From the NCBI RefSeq assembly GCF_028737315.1, contig NZ_JAQZAO010000010.1, positions 124,001-188,000 of the forward strand: a DNA stretch of 64,000 bases, given 5' to 3'. Numbering within the stretch: the stretch's first letter is position 1; each line of letters opens with the position of its first letter. Source of the stretch: Actinomycetospora lemnae (lineage in GTDB: Bacteria; Actinomycetota; Actinomycetes; Mycobacteriales; Pseudonocardiaceae). The notes beneath the pieces are model-generated. The model made no database searches, was not told the DNA's origin, and saw only the letters and a program-made list of their open reading frames with translations. The position numbers and the translations under genes were made by a program. Shown one piece after another: positions 21,529-59,072 of the stretch.

Positions 21529-21902
21529 TCGGTCTCGTCCCCCTCCTGGCGGACGACCTCGTCCCGGCCGGGGCGGTCGACGTCGCGCAGCTCGTCCCGC
21601 TCCGCCGTGCCGTGCGCGACGACGACGCGGTGGACCAGGGCCAGCAGCAGGGCGAGCGTGCCCATGCCGATCACGAGGGCGGTGAGGGCGAGTGCCTGCG
21701 GGAGCGGGTCGCTGAGCGGCCCGCCCTCCGCGGGGTCGAGGGGGGCGCGCCCCTGCGACAGGCTCGACCCGATGATGGTGACGATCGCGCACTGCGAGAT
21801 GAGCGCGATCCCGGCGACGACCCGGACGAGGCTGCGCTGGAGCAGGAGGTAGGAGCCCGCGCCGAAGAGCAGGGCGGCAGCGGCGGCGGTGGCGAGCGTC
21901 AT
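21525..21902 (-). CDS. mnhC: Mrp Na+/H+ antiporter subunit C (MnhC), NuoK-like
   Basis: 125 residues from ATG 21902 (ATGA overlap with mnhB). Three helices in the NuoK fold with LTALVIGMGTLALLLALVHRV as the last. An extended charged tail (DELRDVDRPGRDEVVRQEGDE) follows. It is the membrane subunit placed between MnhA and MnhD in the complex. Confidence 0.92.
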   Translation of the reverse strand: MTLATAAAAALLFGAGSYLLLQRSLVRVVAGIALISQCAIVTIIGSSLSQGRAPLDPAEGGPLSDPLPQALALTALVIGMGTLALLLALVHRVVVAHGTAERDELRDVDRPGRDEVVRQEGDETE

Positions 21903-22363
21903 GTCGGCGGCTCCTGGTCGGGCTCGGCGAGCTGGTGGACGAGCACGGTGACGACGCCGACGACGAGCAGGAAGATGCCGACGTCGAAGCTCACGGCGGT
22001 CATCAGCTCCGCCGTGCCCACGCTCACCACCTCCTCGTCGGGCCCGGGGCGGTGGCTGAACACCGGCTCGCCCAGGGCGACGGGGAAGAACCCGCTGGCG
22101 AGGGCCACGAAGGCGCCGCCGACCGCTGCGTGCGGCGCGTGGCGCAGGACGGGCAGGGCGGCCTCGGCGCGGTGCGCACCGACCGCCACGGCGTTGAGGG
22201 CGACGGCGAGACCGACCACCATGCCGGCGGCGAAACCGTCGCCGACCTTCGTGTAGCCCTTGACGATCAGGGCGACGGCCACGACCACGCTCGGCGCCAG
22301 CAGCAGGCGGGCCACGACCCGCACGATGACCGTGGGGCCGGGGGGCGTCTCCGGGTCGGTCAC
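21899..22363 (-). CDS. mnhB: Mrp Na+/H+ antiporter subunit B (MnhB)
   Basis: 154 residues from GTG 22363, overlapping the mnhA stop by GTGA. It has four helices and family segments KGYTKVGDGFAAGMVVGLAVAL and SFDVGIFLLVVGVVTVLVHQL. It corresponds to the MnhB/MbhF-type subunit. The frame extends upstream through mnhA but that part is antisense-like in composition. Confidence 0.92.
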   Translation of the reverse strand: MTDPETPPGPTVIVRVVARLLLAPSVVVAVALIVKGYTKVGDGFAAGMVVGLAVALNAVAVGAHRAEAALPVLRHAPHAAVGGAFVALASGFFPVALGEPVFSHRPGPDEEVVSVGTAELMTAVSFDVGIFLLVVGVVTVLVHQLAEPDQEPPT

Positions 22364-30785: not shown

Positions 30786-31439
30786 GTGCGTGCCCGTCTC
30801 GTCGGCGGCGTGATCGCCGCCGCCACCGCCGCCTTCCTGGCCGCGGGATGTTCCGATTCCGCCGCGCCGCCCGCGGCCGGCCCCGCCCCGACACCGCCGG
30901 CCTCGTCACCGCAGGCCGGCGCCCCGATCGCGCCCGAGCACAACCAGGTGGACGTGCTGTTCGCCCAGGGCATGATCCCCCACCACCAGCAGGCCATCGC
31001 CATGTCGTCCCAGGCCTCCGAGCGCGCGTCGTCCCAGGAGGTCAAGGACCTGGCCTCGCGCATCGACCAGGAGCAGGGTCCGGAGATCGAGCAGATGACC
31101 GCGATGCTCGACGCCTGGGGCGCGCCTCGCCCGCAACCCGGCTCCACCGCGATGCCCGGCATGCCGGGACACGGCATGCCCGGCGCGCCCATGGGTGGCA
31201 TGCCGATGCAGGGGATGATGGGTGAGGCGCAGATGCGGCAGCTCTCGGCCCAGTCCGGCGCTGCCTTCGACCGCATGTTCCTGCAGATGATGATCGAGCA
31301 CCACAGCGGTGCGGTGCAGATGGCCCAGACCGAGCAGACCCAGGGTCTCAACCCCCAGGCCAGGGAGCTCGCCGGCACCATCGCGGCGGATCAGCAGCGG
31401 GAGATCATCGAGATGCAGACCCTGCTCAGCAGGATCTGA
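30786..31439 (+). CDS. DUF305 lipoprotein (extracytoplasmic metal-associated)
   Basis: 217 residues from GTG 30786, with GGAG upstream. The signal peptide ends in the lipobox LAAGC, then a Pro/Ala linker leads to a four-helix DUF305 (ferritin-like) domain. Motifs are FAQGMIPHHQQAIAMS and FLQMMIEHHSGAVQMAQTE, two copies of the H-H pair. Between them is a Met/Gly/Pro-rich loop (MPGMPGHGMPGAPMGGMPMQ) that could bind Cu(I). The family is frequent beside copper efflux genes. A strong hairpin terminator follows. Confidence 0.9.
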   Translation: MRARLVGGVIAAATAAFLAAGCSDSAAPPAAGPAPTPPASSPQAGAPIAPEHNQVDVLFAQGMIPHHQQAIAMSSQASERASSQEVKDLASRIDQEQGPEIEQMTAMLDAWGAPRPQPGSTAMPGMPGHGMPGAPMGGMPMQGMMGEAQMRQLSAQSGAAFDRMFLQMMIEHHSGAVQMAQTEQTQGLNPQARELAGTIAADQQREIIEMQTLLSRI

Positions 31440-33884: not shown

Positions 33885-34973
33885 TCAGTGTCCATGCGGT
33901 GCGCCCGACTCGGCGTGCGTGGTGGGAGCACCGGCCGGTGCGCCGGGGTCGGCAGCGGCGACGACCGTGAACTCGGCGGTGCGGACCACGCCCCGGTGGG
34001 CGAAGTCGAGGTAGAGCCGGTAGGGACCGGCGGAGGGCACCTCGGCCACGAACTCGATGGCCGGGCCCGCCGCGGTGCGCCCGTCGCCAGGGGACCCGGT
34101 GGGGTGCACGTGCAGGTAGGCGAGGTCGCCGGTCCGCAGGGCGACGAGGTGGCCGTACGCCGCGAGGTAGGGCTGCAGGTCCGTCACGGGAGCTCCGTCA
34201 CGCGCCACCGACAACGTCACGGGGCTGGCGGTGCCGGGGACGAGGGCGCCCGTCAGGGTGACCGTGTAGCCGTCCGGGGTCGTGGCGACGGTGGACGGGG
34301 GCGGCAGGGGCACGGGACCGTAGGCACCGGCGACCGCGATGTCGCGTCCGAGGGTCATCGCCTCGGTGCGCCCGTCGGGAGCGAAGTCGGCGAAGACCCG
34401 GTGGTCGCCCGGGGCGAGGGCCGTCGTGGTGCGCCACGTCCCGTCCGGGTCCATGACCGGGTGGAGGTGCTGGAAGCCGGACTGGTCGCGCCGCACCACG
34501 ATCAGGTGCAGCGGCTTGTCGTGGGTCGGGGTGAAGGCCGTGACCGGGGCACCACCCGGACCGAGGATGCGGAACGCCAGCTCGCCGGGGCGGTCGGCCC
34601 GGTCGGGCGTGTCGGTGACGTCGAGGGTGTAGCCGTCCTCGGAAACGGCCAGCCCGCCGGCGTCCGTTGCGGCGCCGGGAGTGCCACCCCCGTCCTCGGG
34701 CCGAGGTGGGGCCGCGGCGGAGCCGGCCGTCCCGGTCGGCGCCTCAGGGGCGGGCGCGGGGGTGGGCCCGGCCACCGCGCCGACGCCACCGCCCACGACG
34801 AGGGCGAGCACGAGTGCCAGAGCGAAACCACCGAGCCGGACGAGAGGGCGATCGAGAAGTGACCGCCACGTCGAGCGCCGTCCTGACGCACCGCCGCCGC
34901 GGGAATCGGTGGCACCGGGCGTCCGAGACCCGGTCGTGTCCGGGTCGGCCCGCTCGGGGCTCGTCGTGGTCAC
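33885..34973 (-). CDS. Membrane-anchored extracytoplasmic protein in copper operon
   Basis: 362 residues from a GTG overlapping the copZ stop by GTGA. One signal-anchor helix (about residues 46-68) is followed by a Pro/Ala linker and two beta-rich repeats. Each repeat contains a His-bearing strand: HDKPLHLIVVRRDQSGFQHLHPV in the first, GHLVALRTGDLAYLHVHPTG in the second. Similar domain pairs occur in actinobacterial copper operons, but the function is not established. A HAESGAPHGH end adds more His. The placement between copZ and copA argues for periplasmic-side copper binding or sensing. Confidence 0.75.
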   Translation of the reverse strand: MTTTSPERADPDTTGSRTPGATDSRGGGASGRRSTWRSLLDRPLVRLGGFALALVLALVVGGGVGAVAGPTPAPAPEAPTGTAGSAAAPPRPEDGGGTPGAATDAGGLAVSEDGYTLDVTDTPDRADRPGELAFRILGPGGAPVTAFTPTHDKPLHLIVVRRDQSGFQHLHPVMDPDGTWRTTTALAPGDHRVFADFAPDGRTEAMTLGRDIAVAGAYGPVPLPPPSTVATTPDGYTVTLTGALVPGTASPVTLSVARDGAPVTDLQPYLAAYGHLVALRTGDLAYLHVHPTGSPGDGRTAAGPAIEFVAEVPSAGPYRLYLDFAHRGVVRTAEFTVVAAADPGAPAGAPTTHAESGAPHGH

Positions 34974-35194
34974 GGCGTGCTCCCCGTTCCCTCGAGCCGG
35001 TAGCCGGCCTCCTCGACGGCGGCCCGGATCGCGCCGTCGTCGATCGGGCCGACCGCGGTCACGACGAGACGGCGACTGACGAGGTCGACGTCGACGTCCG
35101 AGACGCCTGCCACCTCGGCGACCTCCTCCTGCACCGAGGCCACGCAGTGGGCGCAGGTCATGCCGTCGACGGTGTAGGTGCTGGTCTGGCTCAC
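34970..35194 (-). CDS. copZ: Copper chaperone (CopZ, heavy-metal-associated domain)
   Basis: 74 residues, a single ferredoxin-like HMA domain with GMTCAHC for Cu(I) binding. It delivers Cu(I) to CopA. It starts 27 bases after csoR and overlaps the downstream exported-protein gene, which places it in a CsoR-controlled operon. Confidence 0.93.
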   Translation of the reverse strand: MSQTSTYTVDGMTCAHCVASVQEEVAEVAGVSDVDVDLVSRRLVVTAVGPIDDGAIRAAVEEAGYRLEGTGSTP

Positions 35195-35221: not shown

Positions 35222-35503
35222 TCAGGACCTGACCAGGCGGGCGATCGCGGCGCTGGCCTCGGCGATCTTCTCGTCGGCCACGTCGCCACCCTCCGCCGCT
35301 GCCTCGGCCACGCAGTGCCCGAGGTGGTCGTCGAGCAGGCCGAGGGCGACGTTCTCGAGCGCCCGCGTGGCGGCCGAGACCTGCGTCAGGACGTCGATGC
35401 AGTACTTGTCGTCGGCGACCATCTTCGCGATCCCGCGCACCTGGCCCTCGATCCGGCGCAGCCGCGCGAGGTACGCGTCCTTCTCTCCGGCGTAGCCGTT
35501 CAT
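35222..35503 (-). CDS. csoR: Copper-sensing transcriptional repressor CsoR
   Basis: 93 residues. ATG 35503 was chosen because GAGAGGAG lies just upstream and the longer frame runs through the promoter. It is an all-helical CsoR/RcnR protein with RLRRIEGQVRGIAKMVADDKYCIDVLTQ; Cys in YCIDV and the His-Cys pair in DHLGHC form the C-H-C Cu(I) site. CsoR releases DNA when Cu(I) binds. A perfect operator lies in its own promoter spacer and a second palindrome lies before the divergent nuo-type operon, so both are probably controlled by this protein. Confidence 0.95.
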   Translation of the reverse strand: MNGYAGEKDAYLARLRRIEGQVRGIAKMVADDKYCIDVLTQVSAATRALENVALGLLDDHLGHCVAEAAAEGGDVADEKIAEASAAIARLVRS

Positions 35504-35528: not shown

Positions 35529-35556
35529 ACGATACCCCCTGGGGGTACCCCGTCAA
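35529..35556 (-). promoter_or_regulatory. csoR promoter with CsoR operator in the spacer
   Basis: Minus strand: -35 TTGACG (35556-35551), a 16-base spacer and -10 TATCGT (35534-35529). The spacer is the CsoR-type G/C-run palindrome GGGTACCCCCAGGGGGTAT, overlapping the -10. Binding here would block polymerase, giving copper-inducible autoregulation of csoR-copZ and the genes behind them. Confidence 0.8.
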
Positions 35557-35621: not shown

Positions 35622-35655
35622 TTGCTACGGATACCTATACCCCCTATGGGTATAG
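35622..35655 (+). promoter_or_regulatory. CsoR-like palindrome and promoter upstream of the nuoA-X-nuoHJKLMN operon
   Basis: A palindrome with core TATACCCCCTATGGGTATA (21 bases in all, 35635-35655) matches the A/T-flanked G-run type of CsoR operators. TTGCTA at 35622-35627 and TATGGG at 35645-35650, 17 bases apart, could be -35 and -10, with the palindrome over the -10. It is 36 bases before the nuoA ATG. It could instead contribute to csoR regulation, being 132 bases from that start. Confidence 0.7.
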
Positions 35656-35691: not shown

Positions 35692-36042
35692 ATGGGCGAT
35701 CTGGCACCGGCGCTCGTGGTGCTCGGCATCGGCGTCCTCCTGGTCATCGCGCTCCGGACGCTGGCGCGGGCCGCCGCCGTGGCGCCGCCACTGGAGAACG
35801 TGCTGCCCCACGCCGGCGGGTTGCCACCTCTCGAGCACCCCGTCTCCCGGTTCCACGTCCGCTGGTACGTCGTGACCATGGTGTTCCTGGCCTTCGACAT
35901 GGAGATGATCTTCATGTACCCCTGGACCCTGGTCGTCGTCCAGCGGGGACCGGCGTCGGTGGTCGAGATGTTCGGCTTCCTCGCGCTGCTCATGGCGGGT
36001 GTGGTCTACGCCTGGCGCGAAGGTGCGCTCCGATGGACCTGA
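35692..36042 (+). CDS. nuoA: Complex I subunit A homologue (NuoA)
   Basis: 116 residues. ATG 35692 follows GGGAGGTGGGAG, better placed than the GTG nine bases earlier. It has three helices and the NuoA hallmark FHVRWYVVTMVFLAFDMEMIFMYPW, with Asp/Glu pairs in helix 2. In complex I, NuoA contacts the quinone-module interface. It overlaps the next gene by ten bases. It starts an operon that encodes membrane-arm subunits only. Confidence 0.9.
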   Translation: MGDLAPALVVLGIGVLLVIALRTLARAAAVAPPLENVLPHAGGLPPLEHPVSRFHVRWYVVTMVFLAFDMEMIFMYPWTLVVVQRGPASVVEMFGFLALLMAGVVYAWREGALRWT

Positions 36043-37142
36043 GGACAGCGCTCCTGCGAGCGGCCGTCGCGAGGCCCCACGTGCTGGTCGTCGGCGGGGT
36101 GGGGACCGACCGGCTCCGGGCGCGCGTCGAGCAGGAGGTCGCGCGCCGGCGGTGGCCGGTGGCGACGGCACCGGCCGACACGGACGTCGTCGTGGTCGTC
36201 GGACGGCCGGGCCCGGAGCTCGGCGCGGTGATCGAGGACGTCTGGGTCGGGGTGCCCGCCCCCCGGGCGCGGGTGCAGGTCGTCGACGAGCACGAGATCG
36301 TCCCGGGTCTCGACGAGACCGTCGGGACCCTGGGCGACCTCGACGCGCAACGAGCTCTCGCGGGTCGCGACGGGTCCCGCCCGACACGGGCCGCCTCTCC
36401 CAGCGTCGACGAGGACGACGAGCAGCACGAGCACAGCGCGCACGATGACCACGGCGCCGAGCACGGCACCGAGCACGGCACCGAGCACCACCACCACGGC
36501 GGAGGCACCGAGCTTCCCGGCGGGCTGGCGATGGCCGATCTGGCCGAGGATCGCGACGGGCTCGCCCTCGACCAGCTGCACGTCCCCCTCGGGCCGGTGC
36601 TGCCGGAGTGGCCGAGCGGACTCGTCGTCGACGTCGCCCTCCAGGGCGACGTGATCCAGGACGCCCGGGCGCGCTTCCTCGACGTCGAGGCCGGGGAGGC
36701 CGTCGAGCGCCTGCCCGACGCGGCCCGCGCGCTGACGTCGGTCGCCCGGGTCCTCGCCCTCGCCGGCTGGTCCGGGCCGGCAGCCCGCACGCGCGGCCTG
36801 CGCGACCGGGTGCTCTTCGGCGAGGGCGACACCGCGCACGTCGCCGACGAGCTGGACGCTCTCCGCCGCCGCGTCCACCGCTCCCGCGTCCTGCCCTGGG
36901 TGCTCGGGTCCAGGAAGAGCAGCCGGGGCGCGGTCCTGGACGCGCTCGAGGAGAAGTTCTCGTCGGCCCGGGCCGCCCTCGGCGGGGGCGGCGAGCACCG
37001 GCCGACGACCACCGACCTCCCCGCGCTGGACGCCCGGCTCGTCGGCGCCGAGTTCGCCGCGGCGAGGCTGATCGTCGCCGCCGCGAACCCGGCGCCGCAG
37101 CCCGCTCTCGCCGAGCCGACGAGCACGGAGGGTGCGTCGTGA
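36033..37142 (+). CDS. Cysteine-free NuoB/NuoD-like adaptor protein with His-rich linker
   Basis: 369 residues from ATG 36033. Residues 40-90 (TDVVVVVGRPGPELGAVIEDV) resemble the Rossmann-like core of NuoB around its ADV-IVAGT segment. Residues 160-215 (LHVPLGPVLPEWPSG then VALQGDVIQDA) resemble the NuoD start LGPQHPATHGVLRL-LDGE, but the GPQHP-HG histidines are lost. There is no cysteine anywhere, so the N2 Fe-S cluster of NuoB cannot form. The linker (residues 126-155) is acidic and His-rich, ending HHHH, and is encoded by 12-base direct repeats. It occupies the position of nuoBCD and overlaps nuoH by GTGA. I infer a redox-inactive cap or metal-binding regulator for the membrane arm. The homology claims rest on short segments. 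Confidence 0.7.
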   Translation: MDLRTALLRAAVARPHVLVVGGVGTDRLRARVEQEVARRRWPVATAPADTDVVVVVGRPGPELGAVIEDVWVGVPAPRARVQVVDEHEIVPGLDETVGTLGDLDAQRALAGRDGSRPTRAASPSVDEDDEQHEHSAHDDHGAEHGTEHGTEHHHHGGGTELPGGLAMADLAEDRDGLALDQLHVPLGPVLPEWPSGLVVDVALQGDVIQDARARFLDVEAGEAVERLPDAARALTSVARVLALAGWSGPAARTRGLRDRVLFGEGDTAHVADELDALRRRVHRSRVLPWVLGSRKSSRGAVLDALEEKFSSARAALGGGGEHRPTTTDLPALDARLVGAEFAAARLIVAAANPAPQPALAEPTSTEGAS

Positions 37143-38080
37143 GCACCGCACTGCCGCTCGGTGGGGCGGCCCTCCTGCCGGGCCTGCTGCTGGCCGTCAC
37201 CTGGGCCGCGGTCGCCGCCGACGCCGTCGCCGCCGGACGGGCAGCGGGACGACCCGTGTCCTGGACGGTGGCCCTCGGGCTCCCCGGGCGCGAGGCGGTC
37301 CGGCTGCTCGTGGGACAGCGTCGCCGCACCGCGGCGGGCGACGAGCTGCTGCGCGGGATCGGCGGCGCCGCCCTCCTCGTCGCTGCGCTGATGGCGGCCG
37401 CGGTCCTCCCGCTGGGCCTGCGGCCGGTCGCCGACCTCGGCCCCGGGCTCGTGTGGTTCAACGCGATGGAGGTCGTCGCGTGGGCGGCGGTGTGGCTGGT
37501 CGGGTGGGGCGCCAACAGCACCGTGTCCCTGATCGGCGGCTACCGGTTCGTGGCCCAGGGCCTGGCCTACGAGCTCCCGCACATGTTCGCGCTCATCACC
37601 GCGGCGGTGGGGGCGCAGAGCCTCCGCGTCACCGACGTGGTGGCGGCCCAGCAGGGCCTGTGGTTCATCGTGATCATGCCGGTGGCGTTCGTGGCCTTCC
37701 TGCTCAGCGCGGCGGCCATGGCCTTCTGGGGTCCGTTCGACGCACCGGTCGGCCGGGACGTCGCCGGCGGCGCGGCGGCGGAGCTCTCCGGGGTCGACAG
37801 GCTCGTGTTCAGCACCGGGCGGTGGCTGCTCCTCGTCGCCTCCTCGGCGATGGCGGTCCCGCTGTTCCTCGGTGGAGGGCACGGTCCGTGGCTCCCGGCG
37901 TGGGCCTGGGTGCTGGTCAAGACCCTCGCCGTCCTCGGGGTGCTCATCGTCCTGCGGCACCGGGTCCCGACGATCCGCATGGAGCGGTGGACGGAGTTCT
38001 CGTGGGTCGTCCTCGTTCCCGCGACGATCGCCCAGGCCCTCGTCGTGACCCTGGTCGTCCTCGGCCGAGGAGGCATCTGA
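37139..38080 (+). CDS. nuoH: Complex I subunit H homologue (NuoH)
   Basis: 313 residues from a GTG overlapping the adaptor stop, with eight or nine helices. The family region GGYRFVAQGLAYELPHMFALI keeps the functional Glu145. The quinone-site loop that normally reads RAPFDLPEAE-ELVAGY-TEYSG is changed to FWGPFDAPVGRDVAGGAAAELSG (about residues 196-218), losing several of the conserved acidic residues. NuoH normally couples quinone reduction to proton transfer; with that loop altered and no NuoB cluster present, quinone chemistry is doubtful. Confidence 0.88.
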   Translation: MSTALPLGGAALLPGLLLAVTWAAVAADAVAAGRAAGRPVSWTVALGLPGREAVRLLVGQRRRTAAGDELLRGIGGAALLVAALMAAAVLPLGLRPVADLGPGLVWFNAMEVVAWAAVWLVGWGANSTVSLIGGYRFVAQGLAYELPHMFALITAAVGAQSLRVTDVVAAQQGLWFIVIMPVAFVAFLLSAAAMAFWGPFDAPVGRDVAGGAAAELSGVDRLVFSTGRWLLLVASSAMAVPLFLGGGHGPWLPAWAWVLVKTLAVLGVLIVLRHRVPTIRMERWTEFSWVVLVPATIAQALVVTLVVLGRGGI

Positions 38081-38081
38081 C

Positions 38082-38645
38082 GTGATCACCATCGCCCTGT
38101 TCGGCGCCCTCGCGGTGACCGCGGTCGTCGCCGGCGCGCTCGTCTTCCGCGTCGACTCGATGGCGCGGGCGACGTTCCTGCTGCTGCTGTCGTTCCTGGC
38201 GGTCGCCGGCCTCGTCCTGATGACCGGGCTGCACTACCTCGGCCTGGTCATCGTCCTCATGATGATCATCGAGATGGTCGTCATGGCCGTGTTCATGATC
38301 ATGTACATGATGAACCCGGCCGGGCTCATGCCGATGTCGATGTTCCACAACACCCGAGGGTCCGCCGTCGTCGCGGCGACGACCTTCGTCGCGCTGGCCG
38401 GGGGCGCGCTCCTCGTCGACTGGCCCGTGCGAGGGGGCCGGCCGGCACCGGACCTCACGATGGCGCTCGGCGAGAGCCTCATGGGCGGCCAGATGCTCAC
38501 GATGATGACCCTGGGCGTCACCCTGTTCGCCACGATCGTCGGCACGGTCGTGCTGGCCACCGGCCGGGGTCGGTACGACCGCCTGGGCGACGAGCTCGAC
38601 GCGCCGGAGTCCGACGACCGGGACCGGGGCGGTGTCGGGCGATGA
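38082..38645 (+). CDS. nuoJ: Complex I subunit J homologue (NuoJ), methionine-rich
   Basis: 187 residues from GTG 38082, one base after the nuoH stop. It has five helices in NuoJ order, with GLHYLGLVIVLMM at the usual third-helix position. Residues 60-87 hold eleven methionines plus Glu64 (LMMIIEMVVM, FMIMYMMN, GLMPMSMF), where normal NuoJ has VYAGAV and aliphatic residues. Methionine ladders of this sort occur in Cu(I)/Ag(I) transporters. The third helix of NuoJ is the hinge of the E-channel, so the change sits at a functional point. Confidence 0.88.
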   Translation: MITIALFGALAVTAVVAGALVFRVDSMARATFLLLLSFLAVAGLVLMTGLHYLGLVIVLMMIIEMVVMAVFMIMYMMNPAGLMPMSMFHNTRGSAVVAATTFVALAGGALLVDWPVRGGRPAPDLTMALGESLMGGQMLTMMTLGVTLFATIVGTVVLATGRGRYDRLGDELDAPESDDRDRGGVGR

Positions 38646-38947
38646 CCCTGCAGGCCTTCCTCGTCGTCGCCGCGGCGCTGGTCTCCGTCGGACTGTTCGG
38701 GGCGCTCACGCAGCAGTCCATCGTCATGGTGATGATGGGCCTGGAGCTCCTGCTCAACGGCGTCATCCTCGCCGCGGCCGCGTTCTGGTACTTCCTGGCA
38801 CCGGCCGGCACGGAGGGCCAGGTGCTGATCGTCGTCGTCGTCACGGCGATGGCCATCGAGATGGCGGCCGGCTTCGCGGTCACGACCGCGATCTACCGGG
38901 CCAAGCGCATCGACATGACCGACGACGCCGCCGAGCTGCGGGGCTGA
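38642..38947 (+). CDS. nuoK: Complex I subunit K homologue (NuoK)
   Basis: 101 residues, ATG overlapping the nuoJ stop (ATGA). It has three helices with the two conserved membrane glutamates, in VMMGLELLLNGVIL and in MAIEMAAGFAVTTAIYR. It is close to standard NuoK, suggesting the proton path between NuoJ and NuoN is kept. Confidence 0.92.
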   Translation: MTLQAFLVVAAALVSVGLFGALTQQSIVMVMMGLELLLNGVILAAAAFWYFLAPAGTEGQVLIVVVVTAMAIEMAAGFAVTTAIYRAKRIDMTDDAAELRG

Positions 38948-38949
38948 CC

Positions 38950-40764
38950 ATGAGTGCTCTCCTCGTCGCCCTGCTCCTCGTCCCCCTCGCCGGCGGGACC
39001 GCGCTGATCGTGGTGCGCCCTCCGCGCGGCGCCGTTCCCGCGGGACTCCTGGTCGCCGCGACGACCGTGGGCCTGGCGGTGGCCGCCGCCGTGCAGCGCC
39101 CGCAGGGTCACCTCCCGCTCTTCGAGGGCGTCGCCGCCGGCTTCGCGGTGGACGACCTCTCGGCGGTCATGGTCGTGCTCGTCGCCGTCGCCCTGCTCGC
39201 GGTGCTGGCCTTCGCCGCGGGCGAGCCGGCACTGGGCTCGGGCCGTTTCGTCGGCCTCGTGCTGGTCTTCGCCGGCGCGATGCTGGCGACGGTCACCGCG
39301 ACCACCCTCCCGCCCTTGCTCGCGGCGTGGGAGGTCATGGGCGCGACCAGCTGGGCGCTCATCGCCCACCACACCGGCGACCCGGCGGCGGCCCGCGGCG
39401 CGAGGACGGCGTTCCTGACCACGCGCACCGCGGACCTCGGTCTCTACCTCGCCGCGGGCGCGGTCCTCGCCGGCGGCGTCCCGACCCTCGCACTCGACGC
39501 GTTGCCCGTCGTCGCGGGCGGATGGCAGGACGTCGCCGTCGCCGGCATCGTGGTCGCCGCGCTCGGCAAGTCCGCGCAACTGCCCTTCAGCTTCTGGCTC
39601 TCGGGCGCCATGCACGGTCCGAGCCCGGTGTCGGCGCTGCTGCACTCGGCGACCATGGTCGCCGCCGGGGCCTACCTGCTCCTGCGGACGACGGCGGGGC
39701 TGGACGCGACCGGATGGGCCGGGCCGCTCGTGGCGTGGGTCGGTGCGGGCACCGCCCTGCTGCTCGGTCTCGTCGCGCTCGCGCAGAGCGACCTCAAGCA
39801 ACTGCTCGCCGCGTCGACCTCGGCGCAGATCGGGTTCATGGTGCTCGCCGCCGGGGTCGGCGCCGTGCCCGGCGGGGTGCTGCAGACCGTCGCGCACGCC
39901 GCCACCAAGAGCCTGCTCTTCCTGGTGGCCGGCGCGTGGCTCGTGCGCGTGGGTACTCGTCGGCTCGACGACCTCCGTGGGGCCGCGCGCCGCCACCCGG
40001 TGCTCGGCGCGGCCTTCACCGTCGGGGCCGTGACGCTCGCCGGGGTCCCACCGACCGGCCTGTGGGTGAGCAAGGACGCCGTCCTGGCCGGCGCCCTCTC
40101 GAGCGGGCCCGCCCTGTACACCCTCGGTCTGGCCGCCGGTCTCGTCTCGGCGGGCTACGCCGCCAAGGCCCTCTGGTTCGTCTGGCGTCCGTCGCCCGCC
40201 GGCACCGACGACGCCGCGGTCGGGCGCGTCGGGGTGCGGGTCCAGGCCGTCGTGGCCGTGACGCTCGCGGTGGCCGCCGCCGCGGCGGGGCTGCTCGCCC
40301 TCGGTCCGGACATCCTGCGCCCCGACCCGGCACCGAGCGGCCTCGAGCTCCTCGTCTCCGGAGCGATCGCCGTCGTCGGCGTCGGGCTGACGTGGCTCGT
40401 GGCCGGTCGGCTCCCCGCGCCCGCCCTGCTCCGGTCGTGGCTGGGCCTCGAACGCGTCGCCGTCGCCGTCGTCGTCCGGCCGGCCCTGCGGCTCGCCACC
40501 GCCCTCGCCCGCCTCGACGACGCGCTCCACCAGCGCGTCGTGCTCGGAGCGGGGCGCGGCGCGGTCCGCGCCGCCGACGCCGTCGATCGACACGTCGAGC
40601 GCGGTCTCGACCGGGGCGTCGACGGCGTGGCGGCCGGCGCCCGAGCCCTCGGCCGCACCGCCCGCCGCCCGCAGACGGGCCGGCTGCACCAGTACTACGC
40701 CCAGGCCGCCGTCGGGTTCGGCCTGCTGGCGGCCCTCGCCGTGCTCCTGATCGGGGTGAGCTGA
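38950..40764 (+). CDS. nuoL: Complex I subunit L homologue (NuoL), antiporter-like
   Basis: 604 residues from ATG 38950. It has the antiporter fold with helix-5 Glu128 (LLAAWEVMGATSWALI) and helix-7 Lys207 (GKSAQLPFSFWLSGAMHGPSPVSALLHSATMV). The C-terminal third contains a long charged, probably lateral helix (about residues 500-585, with many Arg/Asp) and a final helix, like the arm-spanning helix HL of NuoL. All expected proton-channel residues I can check are present. Confidence 0.9.
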   Translation: MSALLVALLLVPLAGGTALIVVRPPRGAVPAGLLVAATTVGLAVAAAVQRPQGHLPLFEGVAAGFAVDDLSAVMVVLVAVALLAVLAFAAGEPALGSGRFVGLVLVFAGAMLATVTATTLPPLLAAWEVMGATSWALIAHHTGDPAAARGARTAFLTTRTADLGLYLAAGAVLAGGVPTLALDALPVVAGGWQDVAVAGIVVAALGKSAQLPFSFWLSGAMHGPSPVSALLHSATMVAAGAYLLLRTTAGLDATGWAGPLVAWVGAGTALLLGLVALAQSDLKQLLAASTSAQIGFMVLAAGVGAVPGGVLQTVAHAATKSLLFLVAGAWLVRVGTRRLDDLRGAARRHPVLGAAFTVGAVTLAGVPPTGLWVSKDAVLAGALSSGPALYTLGLAAGLVSAGYAAKALWFVWRPSPAGTDDAAVGRVGVRVQAVVAVTLAVAAAAAGLLALGPDILRPDPAPSGLELLVSGAIAVVGVGLTWLVAGRLPAPALLRSWLGLERVAVAVVVRPALRLATALARLDDALHQRVVLGAGRGAVRAADAVDRHVERGLDRGVDGVAAGARALGRTARRPQTGRLHQYYAQAAVGFGLLAALAVLLIGVS

Positions 40765-40765
40765 C

Positions 40766-42271
40766 GTGCTCTCCGTCGTCGTGTTCCTGCCCGTCGTCGT
40801 CGCGCTCGGCCTCGCCGCGCTCCCGGCCACGAGCGCCCCGCGCCGCTACACCGTCCCGTGGGTGGTGACCGGGCTCGTGCAGCTCGCGCTCGTCGCGATC
40901 ATGTGGCTGCGGCTCCCCGCCGGCGGCTACGGGTTCGTCGAGCAGGTCGCCTGGATCCCGAGCGCTGGCATCTCGTACCACCTCGGCGTCGACGGGCTCT
41001 CGCTCCCGCTGGTGGCGATGACCGTCGTCGTGTTCACCGCGGCCGCGGTCTACTCGCTGCGCGAGGACCGGCGTCCGAAGTCGTACGTGGTGCTGTTCCT
41101 GGCGCTGCAGACCGTGAGCGTCGGCGTCTTCGTCGCCCTCGACCTGATCCTGTTCTTCCTGTTCTTCGACCTGTCGATCGTGTTCATGTACTTCGTCATC
41201 GCGGGCTGGGGTCACGGCTCCAGGGCACGCTCGGCGGCCCTGACGTTCTTCCTCTACACGTTCCTGGGCTCGCTGGCGCTGCTGCTCGGCTTCATCCTGA
41301 TCTACCTCGCCGCGACGCCCCACACCTTCGACATCCCTGCCCTCGCCGCGCAGAACCCGCTGGCGGCCGGCGGCCCCGCCGCCGGGGCGGCGCTCCTCGC
41401 CGTCGGGCTCGGGCTCGCGGTGAAGACCCCGCTCGTCCCGTTCCACACCTGGCTGCCGCCCGCACACACCGAGGCCCCGGCCGCGGGCTCGGCCGTGCTC
41501 GCCGGCGTGCTGCTGAAGATGGGGACCTACGGCTTCGTCCGCATCGCCATGCCTCTGCTGCCCGCGTCGTGGCGGCAGTTCGCCGGCGTGGTCGTGGTGC
41601 TGGGCGTGGTGTCGGTGGTCTACGGCGCGATGGTCGCGCTGGCGCAGACCGACCTGAAGCGCATGATCGCCTACACGTCGGTGAACCACATGGGCTACGT
41701 GCTGCTCGGCGTGGGCGCCGCCGGCCTGGTCGCCGACTCCGACGCGCAGGCACGCCAGCTCGCGACGACCGGTGCGGTGACCCAGATGGTGTCGCACGGG
41801 TTGATCACCGGAGCGCTCTTCCTGCTCGCCGGCGCGTTGCACGACCGCGGCCGCACCTACGACATGGGCGCCTACGGCGGTCTGGCGGCCCGCACGCCGC
41901 GGTTCGCCGGCCTGTTCGCGGTGGCCGCCTTCGCCTCGCTCGGACTCCCCGGCTTCTCCGGGTTCATCGCCGAGTTCCAGATCTTCACCGGCGCGCTCGG
42001 CGCGACACCGGTGGCGACCGCCATCGCCGTCACCGGCATCCTCATCACGGCCGGGCTGTTCCTGGTGGCGCTCTCCCGGATGCTGCTCGGGGAACTGCGC
42101 CATCCCGACGCACCCGGCACGCCCCGGCCCTTCCCCGACCTCCGGGCTCGGGAGCTCGCGGCCATCGTGCCGCTGCTCCTGCTGGCCACCCTGATCGGAC
42201 TCCTGCCGCGGACGTTGCTCGACACGATCGAGCCGGCATCCCGCGTGCTCAACGAGCTGGTCGCGCGATGA
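40766..42271 (+). CDS. nuoM: Complex I subunit M homologue (NuoM), antiporter-like
   Basis: 501 residues from GTG 40766, one base after the nuoL stop. It has fourteen helices with HLGVDGLSLPLVAMT, the Lys helix VKTPLVPFHTWLPPAHTEAP and TDLKRMIAYTSVNHMGYVLLG. The helix-5 acidic residue is Asp135 (LFFDLSIVFMYFVI) instead of the usual Glu, a conservative change. It overlaps a 17-codon ORF that bridges to nuoN. Confidence 0.92.
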   Translation: MLSVVVFLPVVVALGLAALPATSAPRRYTVPWVVTGLVQLALVAIMWLRLPAGGYGFVEQVAWIPSAGISYHLGVDGLSLPLVAMTVVVFTAAAVYSLREDRRPKSYVVLFLALQTVSVGVFVALDLILFFLFFDLSIVFMYFVIAGWGHGSRARSAALTFFLYTFLGSLALLLGFILIYLAATPHTFDIPALAAQNPLAAGGPAAGAALLAVGLGLAVKTPLVPFHTWLPPAHTEAPAAGSAVLAGVLLKMGTYGFVRIAMPLLPASWRQFAGVVVVLGVVSVVYGAMVALAQTDLKRMIAYTSVNHMGYVLLGVGAAGLVADSDAQARQLATTGAVTQMVSHGLITGALFLLAGALHDRGRTYDMGAYGGLAARTPRFAGLFAVAAFASLGLPGFSGFIAEFQIFTGALGATPVATAIAVTGILITAGLFLVALSRMLLGELRHPDAPGTPRPFPDLRARELAAIVPLLLLATLIGLLPRTLLDTIEPASRVLNELVAR

Positions 42272-42321
42272 CCGCCACCGCCACACCCTCACCGGTCGAC
42301 CGCCGGGAGCAGCCATGGTGA
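42268..42321 (+). CDS. 17-codon bridging ORF between nuoM and nuoN (possible coupling peptide)
   Basis: ATG 42268 overlaps the nuoM stop (ATGA). The frame reads MTATATPSPVDRREQPW and its TGA (42319-42321) overlaps the start region of nuoN (ATG 42315). This would hand ribosomes from nuoM to nuoN. It could equally be a by-product of the short spacer; no conserved feature is seen. Confidence 0.35.
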   Translation: MTATATPSPVDRREQPW

Positions 42322-43721
42322 TGATGAACGAGGACCCCACCACCCTCGTCCCGGAGCTGGCCCTGCTCGCCGGAGCCGTCCTCGCCGTCCTCGTCGGAGT
42401 GTGGACGCCACGCCGCCGGCAGGGGCGCGTGCGCGTCCTCGCCCTGCTCGCCGTCGGCGTCGCCCTGGTCGCGACGGGCATCGCGGCCACGAAGCCGCCG
42501 AGCACCACCTTCGACACCTACGTCCTCGACACGACGACCCACGCCGTCCGCGCGATCGTCCTCGTCGCGGTGGCCCTGATCCTGTGGTGGTCACGCGACG
42601 CCGTGGCGGCCCACCCGCGCGAGAGCGAGTTCACCGCGCTCGTCCTGCTCGGTGGCCTCGGAGCGGTCCTGATGGCCGGCGCCGGTGACCTCCTGTTGCT
42701 CTTCGCCGCGTTCCTGCTCGCGAGCGTCCCGCTCTACGCCCTCGCCGGCTGGGCCAAGACCGGGGCGACGACCGAGGCCGCACTGAAGTACTACCTCTCC
42801 GGCGCCTTCGCCGGGGTCACCATGCTCGCCGGCACCACCCTGCTCTACGGGGCCGCCGGGACCACCGGCTACGAGGCCCTCGCGGAAGGGCTCGCGACGG
42901 GAGCCGCGGCACCCGCGGCGGTGGCACTCGTCGCCGTGCTCGCGGGTCTGGCGTTCAAGGCCGGGGCCGTGCCGGCGCACTTCTGGGTCCCCGACGTCAC
43001 CGACGGGACGCCGCCGGCCGTCGCCGCCGTCCTGACCACGATCCCCAAGATCGGTGCCCTGGCCGCCGTGTGGCGGCTGCTCCTGGCGGTACCGGAGGCG
43101 ATCGTGCCGTGGCCCCTGCTCGTCGCGGTCATCGCGGCCATCAGCATGACGCTCGGCAACCTCGCCGCGTTCGCCCAGACGTCCGTCCTGCGGCTGCTCG
43201 CCTACTCGACGGTGTCCCAGGTCGGCTACGTGCTGGTGATCATCGCGGTGGCCGCACGCACCCCCCAGGCCCAGCCGGCGCTCCTCTTCTACCTGGCCGC
43301 CTACGCCCTCACCAACGTCGGGGCCTTCGCGGTGGTCGCGGCACACCCTGCTCGCACCATCGACGAGTTCCAGGGGCTCGGCCGCCGGCGTCCCCTGCTC
43401 GCGATCGCGCTCGTCGTCTGCCTGCTCGGACTCGTGGGCACACCTCCCACGGCCGTGTTCGTCGGCAAGCTCACCGCCTTCACGGCCGCCTTCGACGGCG
43501 GCATGGCCTGGCTCGCCGTCCTCGCGGCGGTCAACACCGTGGCGTCGCTCTTCTACTACCTGCGCTGGATCGCGCCGGTGTTCCGCGCGCAGGCACAGGA
43601 GCCACCGGAGGACACGGGCGAGTCCCGGACCGCCCGCTCCGGCGCCGTCACCGCCGCGGCGCTCTCCGTGGTCCTCGGCGTCGCCGCCGGCCTGGTCCTG
43701 CCCCTGTTCACCACCTCCTGA
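42315..43721 (+). CDS. nuoN: Complex I subunit N homologue (NuoN), antiporter-like
   Basis: 468 residues from ATG 42315, with CGGGAGC upstream. It has fourteen helices and the NuoN pattern, including Lys215 (GLAFKAGAVPAHFWVPDVTDGTPPAV) and LRLLAYSTVSQVGYVLV. The helix-5 Glu of the ELLSIPLY motif is replaced: the equivalent position is Leu134 in FAAFLLASVPLYALAGW. Loss of this Glu should disable or modify one proton channel. It is the last membrane-arm gene; 174 bases then separate it from the multicopper oxidase. Confidence 0.9.
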   Translation: MVMMNEDPTTLVPELALLAGAVLAVLVGVWTPRRRQGRVRVLALLAVGVALVATGIAATKPPSTTFDTYVLDTTTHAVRAIVLVAVALILWWSRDAVAAHPRESEFTALVLLGGLGAVLMAGAGDLLLLFAAFLLASVPLYALAGWAKTGATTEAALKYYLSGAFAGVTMLAGTTLLYGAAGTTGYEALAEGLATGAAAPAAVALVAVLAGLAFKAGAVPAHFWVPDVTDGTPPAVAAVLTTIPKIGALAAVWRLLLAVPEAIVPWPLLVAVIAAISMTLGNLAAFAQTSVLRLLAYSTVSQVGYVLVIIAVAARTPQAQPALLFYLAAYALTNVGAFAVVAAHPARTIDEFQGLGRRRPLLAIALVVCLLGLVGTPPTAVFVGKLTAFTAAFDGGMAWLAVLAAVNTVASLFYYLRWIAPVFRAQAQEPPEDTGESRTARSGAVTAAALSVVLGVAAGLVLPLFTTS

Positions 43722-48851: not shown

Positions 48852-50234
48852 GTGTTCTTCGCCCAGTACTACCTCGACTGCCTCTCCCAGGCCTCCTACA
48901 TGATCGGGGACGAGACCACCGGGCAGGCGGTCGTCGTGGACCCCCGCCGTGACGTGGCCGAGTACCTCGCCGACGCCCGCCACCACGACCTCACGATCGT
49001 GGGCGTGATCGACACGCACTTCCACGCCGACTTCCTCGCGGGGCACCTCGAGCTCGCCCGCGCCACGGGTGCCTGGATCGGCTTCGGGCGACGCGCCGAG
49101 GCCGACTACGAGGTCCGCCACTTCGCCGACGGGGACCGCATCTCGCTCGGGGAGGTCGAGCTCGAGGTGCTCGAGACGCCCGGCCACACCCCGGAGTCGA
49201 TCAGCGTGCTGGTCCGCGAGCACGCCGGCGACGCCGTCCCCTACGGCGTCCTGACCGGCGACGCCCTGTTCATCGGCGACGTCGGCCGCCCGGATCTGCT
49301 CGCCTCGATCGGCTGGTCGAGCGAGGACCTCGGGCGGATGCTGCACGCGTCGATCACCCGCCTGATGGCCCTGCCCGACGAGGTCCGGGTCTTCCCCGCC
49401 CACGGCGCCGGCTCGGCGTGCGGGAAGAACCTCTCCACCGAGCGCTGGTCGACCATCGGCGCCCAGCGGGCCACGAACTACGCCTGCCAGCCCATGAGCG
49501 ACGAGCAGTTCCTGGCCCTCGTCACCGCCGACCAGCCGGCCGCGCCGGCCTACTTCCTGCACGACGCCGTGCTCAACCGGCGCGAGCACCCCGTCCTCGA
49601 CACCTCCGCGACCCCGATGCCGCTGGAGCTCGAGGAGGTGCTGGAGCGCCGGCGCGCGGGGGCCGTGGTCCTCGACGCCCGCGATCCCGCCGAGTTCGCG
49701 GCGGGCCACCTGGCCGGCTCGCTCAACGTGCCCGCCGACGGACGCTTCGCCGAGACCGCCGGCTCGGTCGTCCGGCCCGACGAGGAGATCGTCGTGGTCG
49801 CCCCCCAGGACCGCGAGGAGGAGATCGTCATCCGGCTCGCCCGCATCGGGTTCGACCGCGTCACGGGCTACCTGCGCGAGCCCGAGGGCGCGTTCCTCGC
49901 CGCCGACGACGAGGTCCGCCCGGCGAGCCGGCTGACCGCCGCGGAGCTCGCGCGGGCCCTGGACGCGGAGACCCCGCCGACCGTGCTCGACGTGCGCAAC
50001 CCCGGCGAGACCGCGGTCGGGGGCACCGTGCCCGGCGCCCTCACCATCCCGCTGGCCGCCCTGCCCTCCCGCCTCGCCGAGGTCCCCACCGATCGCCCGG
50101 TCGTGGCGTACTGCGCGGGCGGCTACCGCTCGAGCGTCGCGGCGAGCCTCCTGCGGCGGGCCGGCCACGCCGACGTGTCCGACCTCCTGGGCGGGTACGC
50201 CGCGTGGACGCTCATGACCCCGCAGCCGGCCTGA
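48852..50234 (+). CDS. Persulfide dioxygenase-rhodanese fusion (CstB-like)
   Basis: 460 residues from GTG 48852, with GAGGAG upstream. The N-terminal metallo-beta-lactamase domain (1-230) has THFHADFLAGH, ETPGHTPES, TGDALF with Asp137 and PAHGAGS, matching the Fe ligands of ETHE1/CstB. Two rhodanese domains follow: the first (260-355) has no catalytic Cys (VVVAPQDREEE), the second (370-455) has Cys in VAYCAGGYRSS. This is the CstB architecture; such enzymes oxidise persulfides to sulfite or thiosulfate with O2. It is the first gene of the sulfur island and has operator-like site A in its leader. Confidence 0.9.
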   Translation: MFFAQYYLDCLSQASYMIGDETTGQAVVVDPRRDVAEYLADARHHDLTIVGVIDTHFHADFLAGHLELARATGAWIGFGRRAEADYEVRHFADGDRISLGEVELEVLETPGHTPESISVLVREHAGDAVPYGVLTGDALFIGDVGRPDLLASIGWSSEDLGRMLHASITRLMALPDEVRVFPAHGAGSACGKNLSTERWSTIGAQRATNYACQPMSDEQFLALVTADQPAAPAYFLHDAVLNRREHPVLDTSATPMPLELEEVLERRRAGAVVLDARDPAEFAAGHLAGSLNVPADGRFAETAGSVVRPDEEIVVVAPQDREEEIVIRLARIGFDRVTGYLREPEGAFLAADDEVRPASRLTAAELARALDAETPPTVLDVRNPGETAVGGTVPGALTIPLAALPSRLAEVPTDRPVVAYCAGGYRSSVAASLLRRAGHADVSDLLGGYAAWTLMTPQPA

Positions 50235-50254
50235 CCTCCCGGGTGCGCCTCCGG

Positions 50255-50304
50255 CGCTCGTGAGCAGGAAGAAGTGCTGGAGCACTCCTTTCTGCTCACG
50301 AGCG
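50255..50304. terminator. Long bidirectional hairpin between convergent genes (copy 2)
   Basis: 24-base arms (50255-50278 and 50281-50304) with one G-T wobble and one mismatch. The inner part repeats GTGAGCAGGAAGAAGT from 48693. It lies between the persulfide dioxygenase and the SQR-like gene, where a two-way terminator is expected. Confidence 0.75.
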
Positions 50305-50319
50305 CGTCAGCGCACTTCG

Positions 50320-51516
<1,197 letters not shown>

Positions 51517-51535
51517 GGTGGCCCTCCTCACATAT

Positions 51536-51553
51536 GTAGGTACAGCCCAACAT
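51536..51553 (-). promoter_or_regulatory. Sulfur-island operator-like site B
   Basis: Read on the minus strand ATGTTGGGCTGTACCTAC, equal to site C (59073-59090) at 13 of 18 positions. It contains the inverted repeat GTTGG-N6-CCTAC. It lies 20 bases before the SQR start and could also act on the divergent sulP promoter. Confidence 0.65.
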
Positions 51554-51698
51554 AAGAGCCACCTCTCGCCCGAGCAAGGACGGGCCCGACCGACATCCGC
51601 GGGTCGTTGGACCCTTGTCGCGGGCGCCCACCTGTACCAACCTCTGCGTCCGCTCCGGGCATCTCGGGAGCGGAGGGCTCGGGGTGAGGAGGACGCGC

Positions 51699-53219: not shown

Positions 53220-53244
53220 CCGTCGGGACCTTCGACCCCTTGTC

Positions 53245-53257
53245 CCAACATTGGTAC
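53245..53257 (+). promoter_or_regulatory. Sulfur-island operator-like site E (weak)
   Basis: CCAACATTGGTAC, on the reverse strand GTACCAATGTTGG, shares the ATGTTGG half of the motif in site B. It lies 48 bases before the Soe-like operon. Only a half-site, so weaker than A to D. Confidence 0.35.
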
Positions 53258-53305
53258 GCGTGTCACACTCCCGGCTCCGGGGGCCGTCGAGGAGGGGGGC
53301 GTCCT

Positions 53306-54844: not shown

Positions 54845-54878
54845 CCCGCTCCCGCCCGCCACCTCCGAGGAGAGCGCC

Positions 54879-58993: not shown

Positions 58994-59072
58994 GCAGCGC
59001 CCTCGGACCTCCGGCACCGCCAGCAGCAGCGTGACGCCGCGCCGTGTTTGACGGGTTCGCCGACCGCCCGTA

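What the first reader, a model, noticed from the sequence alone, without database searches (positions are those of the whole stretch)
35692..43721. Complex I membrane arm without any electron-input module, with a cysteine-free NuoB/NuoD-like protein in its place
The operon is nuoA-X-nuoHJKLMN with tight overlaps and no room for nuoB, C, D, E, F, G or I. X (36033-37142) has short NuoB-like and NuoD-like segments but no cysteine and none of the NuoD GPQHP-HG histidines. NuoH has lost much of its quinone-loop acid pattern. Known complex I, Fpo-type and hydrogenase-linked relatives all keep NuoB with its N2 cluster. This looks like a redox-dead descendant that keeps only ion translocation, which I do not know to be described.
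Basis: partly seen in the sequence, partly recalled or inferred. Interest (0 to 1): 0.93.

Follow-up and report, generated by a model that had tools for sequence, protein, structure and literature searches.

The report
Complex I rebuilt as copper pump
Bacteria of at least two phyla carry a form of respiratory complex I that has lost its known electron-carrying parts, has an unchanging row of methionines in its membrane core and often sits among copper-resistance genes, and it is predicted to pump copper out of the cell.

Summary
In detail: 35692-43721 is nuoA-X-nuoHJKLMN with no room for nuoB/C/D/E/F/G/I, and a normal 14-gene nuo operon lies elsewhere in the genome. X is a trimmed NuoB-NuoD fusion (predicted structure, profiles, intermediate relatives) without N2 cysteines or quinone histidines. 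The same gene order recurs across Actinomycetota and on alphaproteobacterial plasmids, as one clade outside all sampled Nuo and Hyf complexes.

(1) NuoJ carries ten methionines and a histidine invariant in 92 of 92 clade sequences; each methionine occurs in at most 1 of 17 canonical NuoJ. (2) One (M61) replaces complex I Tyr59, the position of the Na+-path glutamate of Mrp antiporters. (3) CsoR-type operators lie upstream of nuoA in 32 of 74 loci (31 of 745 background). (4) CopA, CopZ or CsoR genes flank about half the loci. (5) X's linker is often His-rich, or holds heavy-metal-binding domains in relatives. Proton-channel residues are mostly kept.

Best explanation: a redox-free, proton-motive-force-driven Cu(I) exporter (about 0.5). 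Transport, direction and coupling are inferred and untested. Ten open-access full-text searches listed no description.

The parts
35692..36042 (+). nuoA; carries clade residues H49, H55, M70, M72, M75 (numbered from 35692; number from 35683, i.e. 3 higher)
   Evidence: PF00507 E 5.5e-25; H55, M72, M75 in 72/72 near, 16/16 distant and 6/6 plasmid sequences; canonical 0, 3 and 0 of 18. H49 and M70 are less general (13/16 and 15/16 distant, 2/6 and 4/6 plasmid)
36033..36347 (+). X, N-terminal NuoB-like domain (residues 1-105), without any of the four N2 cysteines
36348..36530 (+). X, low-confidence His/acid-rich linker (about residues 106-166)
   Evidence: pLDDT mostly under 60; His 15% of linker against 1.5% of N-domain over 82 family X; Pfam HMBD at this place in 3 of 7 relatives tested, L190, L200, L201
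36531..37142 (+). X, C-terminal shrunken NuoD-like domain (fold match residues 170-358), no GPQHP histidines
37139..38080 (+). nuoH; E157, R148, E228, K274 kept, acidic quinone loop E216/E218 lost (E. coli numbers)
   Evidence: PF00146 E 2.4e-41; residue table over 78 loci plus window
38082..38645 (+). nuoJ with the methionine ladder (M27, M60, M61, E64, M65, M68, M72, M76, M77, M85, M87, H89; M138 in 90 of 92)
   Evidence: PF00499 E 4.8e-11
38259..38348 (+). core of the ladder, NuoJ residues 60-89 (TM3 and the TM3-4 loop): MMxxEMxxMAxxMxxxMM...MxMxH
   Evidence: 92 of 92 clade sequences (70 near, 16 distant, 6 plasmid; 73 after 90% dereplication); canonical 0 of 17 at each methionine but M68 (1) and 2 of 17 at H89; DNA pattern 33 matches in 396 genomes, reversed control 0
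38642..38947 (+). nuoK; E35 and E73 (E. coli E36, E72) kept; M29 and M70 invariant in the clade, M31 and M74 mostly (M32 also common in canonical NuoK)
38944..40764 (+). nuoL; E144, K229, K305, K342, K399 (E. coli numbers) kept
40766..42271 (+). nuoM; E144 is D, K234, K265, E407 kept
42315..43721 (+). nuoN; E133 is L in the whole near clade, K217, K247, K395 kept
35638..35652 (.). CsoR type-2 operator-like palindrome TACCCCCTATGGGTA, ending 39 bases before nuoA
   Evidence: consensus of S. lividans CsoR in PMC3902906 (passages)
35533..35547 (.). second operator-like palindrome TACCCCCTGGGGGTA, near the csoR start
   Evidence: overlaps a promoter-like match on the csoR strand
35222..35503 (-). 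csoR-type metal-sensitive repressor, divergent from nuoA
   Evidence: PF02583 E 7e-30
34970..35194 (-). copZ-like HMA protein
   Evidence: PF00403
31500..33824 (-). copA-like heavy-metal P-type ATPase
   Evidence: PF00122, PF00403
43752..45443 (+). multicopper oxidase, 30 bases after nuoN (a neighbour here; rare near other copies)
   Evidence: three Cu-oxidase Pfam domains; MCO in 3 of 82 other loci
30786..31439 (+). CopM/DUF305 metallochaperone-like protein
   Evidence: NF049983 93.1 bits, cut-off 90

Best explanation
The operon nuoA-X-nuoHJKLMN encodes a complex-I-derived membrane complex without the known redox-cofactor ligands that likely works as a copper-induced, proton-motive-force-driven Cu(I) exporter. 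Shown by sequence: no electron-input genes; no N2 cysteines or quinone histidines in X; mostly conserved proton-channel lysines and glutamates; an invariant Met/His ladder in NuoJ, with more in NuoK and NuoA; CsoR-type operators; copper-gene neighbours at about half the loci. Inferred: X (trimmed NuoB-NuoD with a His-rich or HMBD linker) takes Cu(I) from the cytosol or CopZ at the former quinone mouth; Cu(I) moves over the NuoJ TM3-4 loop (MxMxH) and the NuoA histidines onto the thioethers of NuoJ TM3, beside the NuoK glutamates; proton entry through NuoL/M/N drives it outward, as in Mrp antiporters, with soft Met ligands where Mrp uses a glutamate for Na+.
For: Ladder: NuoJ M27, M60, M61, M65, M68, M72, M76, M77, M85, M87 and H89 in 92 of 92 clade sequences (70 near, 16 distant, 6 plasmid; median pairwise identity 56%, 73 left after 90% dereplication); canonical 0 of 17 at each methionine except M68 (1), H89 2 of 17, and position 61 is Tyr in 17 of 17. 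10 of 21 invariant NuoJ columns of the 70 near sequences are Met. Met content: NuoJ 9.7% against 2.9%, NuoK 8.4 against 4.5, NuoA 5.5 against 2.7, while H, L, M, N have less Met than canonical. A DNA pattern for MMxxEMxxMA hits 32 of 396 genomes, including 17 of 17 that carry X by profile; reversed-pattern control 0. In Mrp the NuoJ-like part carries E706 on the proposed Na+ path, Y59 in complex I (PMC7419157, passages), M61 here. Operators: 32 of 74 dereplicated loci against 31 of 745 background, p 4e-20, best of 20 permuted motifs; 12 of 39 where no copper gene was found near. CsoR-family gene within 10 kb of X in 7 of 18 other X-bearing genomes, 0.2 expected. CopA, CopZ, CsoR or w33885 genes in 39 of 82 loci, and copper genes around 8 of the 9 plasmid copies I opened (none in 113). 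HMBD in X of L190, L200, L201. Proton residues: NuoL E144, K229, K305, K342, K399 and NuoM K234, K265, E407 without substitution (1-2 gaps in L) in 76-78 near and 22 of 22 other sequences; NuoK E35, E73 in 90 of 90.
Against: No experiment; copper transport, direction and coupling are inferred. 43 of 82 loci show no CopA/CopZ/CsoR/w33885 gene within up to 10 kb on each side (six of the 43 are under 18 kb and cannot show much), they share no other neighbour, and a Rhodococcus plasmid cassette has no listed copper gene in 24 kb. Where csoR is divergent, an operator may serve csoR only. Operators were found in only 3 of 16 distant loci. Several X have no His in the linker (L051, L053, L061, L064, L067), so the linker cannot be essential. 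All seven TM3 methionines together do not form a significant helix face (R 0.45, p 0.16); only a post hoc core set does (p 0.004). NuoN E133 is lost, NuoN K217 is E in 5 of 22 distant/plasmid sequences and NuoH E157 is kept in only 9 of 22. CopA already exports Cu(I) (recalled), so a second cytosolic exporter needs a reason.
Confidence: 0.5

Rival explanations
1. A copper-gated Na+/K+/H+ antiporter or proton valve: Cu(I) on the ladder or linker is a signal that opens or closes an Mrp-like ion exchanger, which restores ion balance under copper stress; copper is not the cargo.
For: Antiporter residues of NuoL and NuoM are kept; Mrp shows that a redox-free relative can be an antiporter (PMC7419157 passages); about half the loci lack nearby copper genes.
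Against: A regulator site would hardly need ten invariant methionines spread through TM1, TM3 and the TM3-4 loop of NuoJ, one nearly invariant in TM5, and more in NuoK and NuoA; the Mrp cation glutamate is a methionine here.
Confidence: 0.22
2. A copper importer or supply device that loads copper into the cytosol or to cuproenzymes.
For: CopZ-like, CopM/DUF305 and, in the window, multicopper oxidase neighbours.
Against: CsoR-type repressors release their operators when copper is in excess (recalled), and the commonest neighbours are export and detoxification genes.
Confidence: 0.1
3. A redox complex after all: Cu(I)/Cu(II) bound to X and the ladder replaces Fe-S clusters, and electrons from cuprous ion or from a copper protein reach quinone.
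For: Copper-type ligands next to a former quinone site; cytochrome c, cupredoxin or multicopper oxidase genes near some copies.
Against: NuoD quinone histidines and much of the NuoH acidic loop are lost; thioether ligands favour Cu(I) over Cu(II) (recalled); no unlabelled flank family is shared by more than 16 of 83 loci, so no constant donor subunit is seen.
Confidence: 0.08
4. A decayed remnant of complex I without function.
For: Loss of cofactor sites; one relative (G006) has a stop in X and the own genome has a broken X-like fragment.
Against: Intact overlapping genes in conserved order in 73 of 80 loci and invariant residues across two phyla.
Confidence: 0.02

Closest known systems
Respiratory complex I (NDH-1, 14 or 11 subunits)
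   Same: NuoA, H, J, K, L, M, N homologues in canonical order; proton-channel Lys/Glu mostly kept; X is built from NuoB and NuoD folds at the place of nuoBCD
   Different: No C, E, F, G, I; no N2 cysteines; no quinone histidines; NuoJ Tyr59 is Met; deep separate clade
Mrp-type Na+/H+ antiporter
   Same: Redox-free use of NuoL/M/K/J-type subunits; cation path proposed past the NuoJ-like residue E706 (PMC7419157, passages)
   Different: Keeps NuoA, NuoH and a NuoB-NuoD remnant; no operon gene has a best match to another Mrp subunit; the E706 position is Met; the window also seems to hold a separate Mrp operon at 19054-24534
Group 4 [NiFe] hydrogenases and energy-converting hydrogenase-related (Ehr) complexes (Ehr from recall)
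   Same: The C-domain of X has its highest-Z fold match in HycE, tied within 1 Z with NuoD chains; relatives are annotated 'Ni,Fe-hydrogenase III large subunit'
   Different: No conserved metal-site or Fe-S cysteines; membrane subunits branch on the Nuo side, far from Hyf/Hyc
CopA P1B-ATPase and CusCBA copper export
   Same: CsoR-type operators, copper islands, HMBD as in CusB (weak NCBIfam CusB match in two relatives), methionine path as in CusA (recalled)
   Different: Unrelated architecture; energy would come from protons through complex-I modules

Membership tests
Respiratory complex I (Nuo) | Membrane subunits A, H, J, K, L, M, N | tested here: met
   Pfam matches; order in 73 of 80 loci
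Respiratory complex I (Nuo) | NuoB with four cysteines for cluster N2 | tested here: not met
   No Cys in window X; no family column with more than 20 of 83 Cys; canonical Cys 37, 38, 103, 132 have no Cys opposite in the seven HMBD-type X aligned
Respiratory complex I (Nuo) | NuoD quinone-binding GPQHP histidines | tested here: not met
   LGPVLPEWPSGL aligned to that hairpin
Respiratory complex I (Nuo) | Electron-input subunits C, E, F, G, I in the operon | tested here: not met
   0 canonical B, C, D, E, F, G, I genes in 80 loci of up to 21 kb
Respiratory complex I (Nuo) | Conserved NuoJ TM3 tyrosine (E. coli Y59) | tested here: not met
   Met in 92 of 92 clade sequences, Tyr in 17 of 17 canonical
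Respiratory complex I (Nuo) | Proton-channel Lys/Glu in L, M, N, K | tested here: met
   Kept except NuoM E144D (near clade), NuoN E133L/V and NuoN K217E in 5 of 22
Group 4 [NiFe] hydrogenase / Ehr | Small subunit with Fe-S cysteines and membership of the Hyf/Hyc branch | tested here: not met
   Cysteines absent; the tree separates the X clade from Hyf/Hyc, X clade support 1.0, Nuo clade 0.98-0.99
Mrp antiporter | MrpA-G subunit set without NuoH, NuoA, NuoB/D parts | tested here: not met
   Operon Pfam content: NuoA, NuoH present, no MrpB/E/F/G-type family
Mrp antiporter | Cation-path glutamate at the NuoJ Y59 position (MrpA E706) | tested here: not met
   Met61; equivalence from a PMC7419157 passage
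Mrp antiporter | Cation/proton exchange driven by the proton gradient | not testable with these tools
   Needs a transport assay
CsoR-controlled copper export system | CsoR type-2 operator sequence at the promoter | tested here: met
   Two sites in the window; 32 of 74 loci against 31 of 745; binding itself untested
CsoR-controlled copper export system | Copper translocation | not testable with these tools
   Inferred from the ladder only

The most novel reading that the evidence does not exclude
Complex I has been turned into a transition-metal pump: a clade across Actinomycetota and Proteobacteria has thrown out all redox chemistry, rebuilt the quinone module as a copper-receiving domain and lined the E-channel with methionines, so that proton flow through NuoL/M/N drives Cu(I) export. 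It would be a further functional class of the complex I superfamily beside redox pumps and Mrp antiporters.
Probability: 0.45. Interest if true: 0.96.

Novelty: categorically new. Interest (0 to 1): 0.92.

Why it matters
How the quinone site of complex I is coupled to distant proton channels is a long-standing question. A natural relative that keeps the channels, the E-channel and the shells of NuoB and NuoD but has no known redox chemistry separates the two halves of the machine, and it can be tested. If copper is the cargo, it shows that the superfamily can couple protons to a soft metal ion, gives a site (NuoJ position 59) where Glu, Tyr and Met would mark Na+ antiport, redox coupling and copper handling, and adds an unrecognised part to copper islands and plasmids. 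Records now annotate its genes as NADH-quinone oxidoreductase subunits, so respiratory inventories would count it wrongly.

Tried and rejected
Tried without result: Pfam and NCBIfam on X itself gave nothing above a cut-off; NuoD could not be shown from X by profile comparison alone (P 0.02-0.19) and needed the structure and the intermediate relatives. Foldseek on whole X gave no match under E 0.001, although most top rows were complex I entries with NuoB-type chains; likewise the N-domain alone (best 1.2e-3; one unrelated chain, AmiR, at rank 33). A shared neighbour in the 43 loci without copper genes was sought and not found. The helix-face test of all seven TM3 methionines was not significant. 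Ten paper searches listed no paper on such a complex by title or abstract start; one of them was swamped by unrelated words. I read passages of three papers (PMC3902906, PMC10212512, PMC7419157), no whole text. The library lacks most subscription papers and bioRxiv.

Considered and rejected: recent decay of the local actinobacterial nuo operon (tree); dependence on canonical NuoEFG from elsewhere (X lacks the N2 ligands). The second-best permuted motif (CTACC, 11 of 74, p 1.5e-4) was not followed. The root of the tree rests on long Hyf branches, so 'sister to all Nuo' is provisional; the grouping of the X clade does not depend on it. The sets are not fully independent: near-identical pairs remain (L024/L026, L038/L039, L197/L198, L207/L208), and the 111 X contain one protein twice. 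The background may contain some nuoA upstream regions shared with divergent neighbours, which would make it conservative.
Full report
Observation. The operon at 35692-43721 is as described. Genes overlap or abut (spacings -10, -4, +1, -4, -4, +1, +43), Pfam confirms A, H, J, K, L, M, N, and X has no match above a cut-off in Pfam or NCBIfam. A multicopper oxidase follows 30 bases after nuoN. The genome holds a complete canonical 14-gene nuo operon on another contig.

How widespread. X as bait gave 149 places in GTDB species genomes, of which 80 were kept. A, H, J, K, L, M, N stand in order in 73 of the 80, and no electron-input gene was found in any. In 396 sampled Actinomycetota genomes, this one included, 17 carry X by profile. 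The DNA pattern of the NuoJ ladder finds 32 of 396, including all 17; of the 15 extra ones 13 belong to one family (f29), of which two (G096, G075) were fetched and show the operon, two more have a NuoD-like hit beside the pattern (G051, G064), and one hit elsewhere (G363) looks like chance. G096 matches Rubrobacter aplysinae by protein and contig length. The same operon, with X carrying heavy-metal-binding domains by annotation, lies on plasmids of Paracoccus, Roseovarius, Nitratireductor, Sulfitobacter and Rubrobacter tropicus, and with X annotated hypothetical on Arthrobacter FB24, Curtobacterium, Pseudonocardia and Rhodococcus plasmids. Concatenated trees put all sampled copies in one clade, support 100 (40 taxa) and 1.0 (62 taxa, also without J, K and A), outside 11-, 12- and 14-subunit Nuo complexes.

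Copper. Of 82 loci examined, 39 hold CopA, CopZ, CsoR or a homologue of the window's 33885-34811 protein; the CopA/CopZ cluster occurs in 36 and CsoR in 31 of 83 including the window. Multicopper oxidase is rare, 3 of 82. In 18 other X-bearing genomes (a part of the carriers known), CsoR-family genes occur at about 0.5 per Mb, yet 7 of 18 have one within 10 kb of X where 0.2 would be expected (P 2e-9). The published type-2 CsoR operator of Streptomyces is ATATACCCCTNAGGGGTATAT (PMC3902906, passages). Such palindromes (half-sites with at most one mismatch) stand upstream of nuoA in 32 of 74 dereplicated loci against 31 of 745 background upstream regions (p 4e-20), the best of 20 permutations; loci without copper genes nearby have 12 of 39 (p 2e-7). 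With a stricter pattern it was 16 of 82: 14 of 40 with and 2 of 42 without copper genes. The window has two, one ending 39 bases before nuoA. In 16 distant loci only three had one, so regulation may differ there.

The methionine ladder. Comparing clade members with canonical subunits for conserved differences gave the strongest result. NuoJ M27, M60, M61, E64, M65, M68, M72, M76, M77, M85, M87 and H89 are present in 92 of 92 clade sequences (69 loci and the window, 16 distant, 6 plasmid), which have a median pairwise identity of 56% and number 73 after 90% dereplication. Canonical NuoJ has none of 17 at each of these, but 1 at M68 and 2 at H89. Ten of the 21 invariant NuoJ columns of the 70 near sequences are methionine. 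NuoK M29, M32, M70 and NuoA H55, M72, M75 (window numbering) are also invariant in the clade, though canonical NuoK has methionine at 32 in 12 and at 29 in 3 of 17, and canonical NuoA at M72 in 3 of 18. Met is enriched only in J, K and A; in H, L, M and N it is below canonical. These three subunits with part of NuoH form the E-channel; NuoJ TM3 is its gate and the NuoJ TM3-4 loop communicates with the NuoA TM1-2 loop (PMC10212512, passages). In Mrp, the NuoJ-like part of MrpA carries E706 on the proposed Na+ path, replaced by Y59 in complex I (PMC7419157, passages); here it is M61. The TM3-4 loop with MxMxH should face the cytosol, as the charged C-terminus suggests (inference). Against a simple channel face: the seven TM3 methionines together are not significantly one-sided (p 0.16); a core set chosen afterwards is (p 0.004).

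Ion translocation. Over 76-79 aligned sequences NuoL E144, K229, K305, K342, K399, NuoM K234, K265, E407, NuoN K217, K247, K395 and NuoK E36, E72 (E. coli numbers) show no substitution, apart from 1-2 gaps; NuoM E144 is D, NuoN E133 is L; NuoH keeps E157 (77 of 79) and E228 and loses E216, E218. In 22 distant or plasmid sequences NuoL and NuoM sites hold in 22 of 22 (NuoM E144 is D in 15 and E in 7), NuoN K217 in 17, NuoH E157 in 9, NuoH E228 in 22.

Mechanism. Shown: a complex I derivative without the known redox ligands, with mostly intact proton machinery, a metal-type ladder, metal-binding linkers in many members and copper-type operator sequences. Inferred: Cu(I) enters from the cytosol at X/NuoA/NuoJ, passes along NuoJ TM3 next to the NuoK glutamates, and leaves to the outside, driven by protons entering through NuoL/M/N. 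Export rather than import is inferred from the CsoR-type control and the company of detoxification genes. The main rival is a copper-gated antiporter.

Novelty. The thing fails tested defining features of complex I, group 4 hydrogenases and Mrp antiporters, while it is homologous to them. I call it categorically new in that sense; if copper turns out to be only a signal, 'new variant of a known kind' would fit better. No paper on it came up in ten searches of the open-access library, which cannot exclude one elsewhere.

Noticed in passing
window 19054-24534 (-): Seven adjoining genes that read, by size and sequence, like an Mrp antiporter operon lie 11 kb upstream in the same window; not searched against families.
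   Followed up: no
window 33885-34811 (-): A roughly 300-aa protein without Pfam or NCBIfam match, with FQHLHP and YLHVHP motifs; homologues stand near X in 25 of 83 loci. Probably an extracytoplasmic copper-binding protein.
   Followed up: partly
window 48852-61706 (+): Genes that read like sulfur oxidation (persulfide dioxygenase/rhodanese, sulfide-quinone-reductase-like, SulP, TauE) downstream; rhodanese-like genes also lie near X in L002, L003 and L006.
   Followed up: no
X of L189 and L191-L199: A second X subtype has a conserved Gly/Met stretch (such as GQGGEGMMGGTPYGRPM) before the NuoD part instead of a His-rich or HMBD linker.
   Followed up: no
L213 (Rhodococcus pyridinivorans plasmid, 9391-17667): The eight-gene cassette stands alone between two IS3 transposase genes, without a listed copper gene in 24 kb; ISKra4 elements lie near the Roseovarius and Sulfitobacter copies.
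   Followed up: no
L177, L178 (G094, G062): NuoD-like proteins in long reading frames (543 and 680 aa) without any other recognised complex I subunit within 18 kb.
   Followed up: no
G000:C26:65115-65279 and G006:C13:128808-129926: A fragment of an X-like gene with a stop in the window's own genome, and an X with an internal stop in a congener: traces of broken copies.
   Followed up: no
plasmid records: Six plasmid records of Mycobacterium (paragordonae, avium, intracellulare) carry X and its NuoJ; X is annotated DUF4779 or hypothetical.
   Followed up: no
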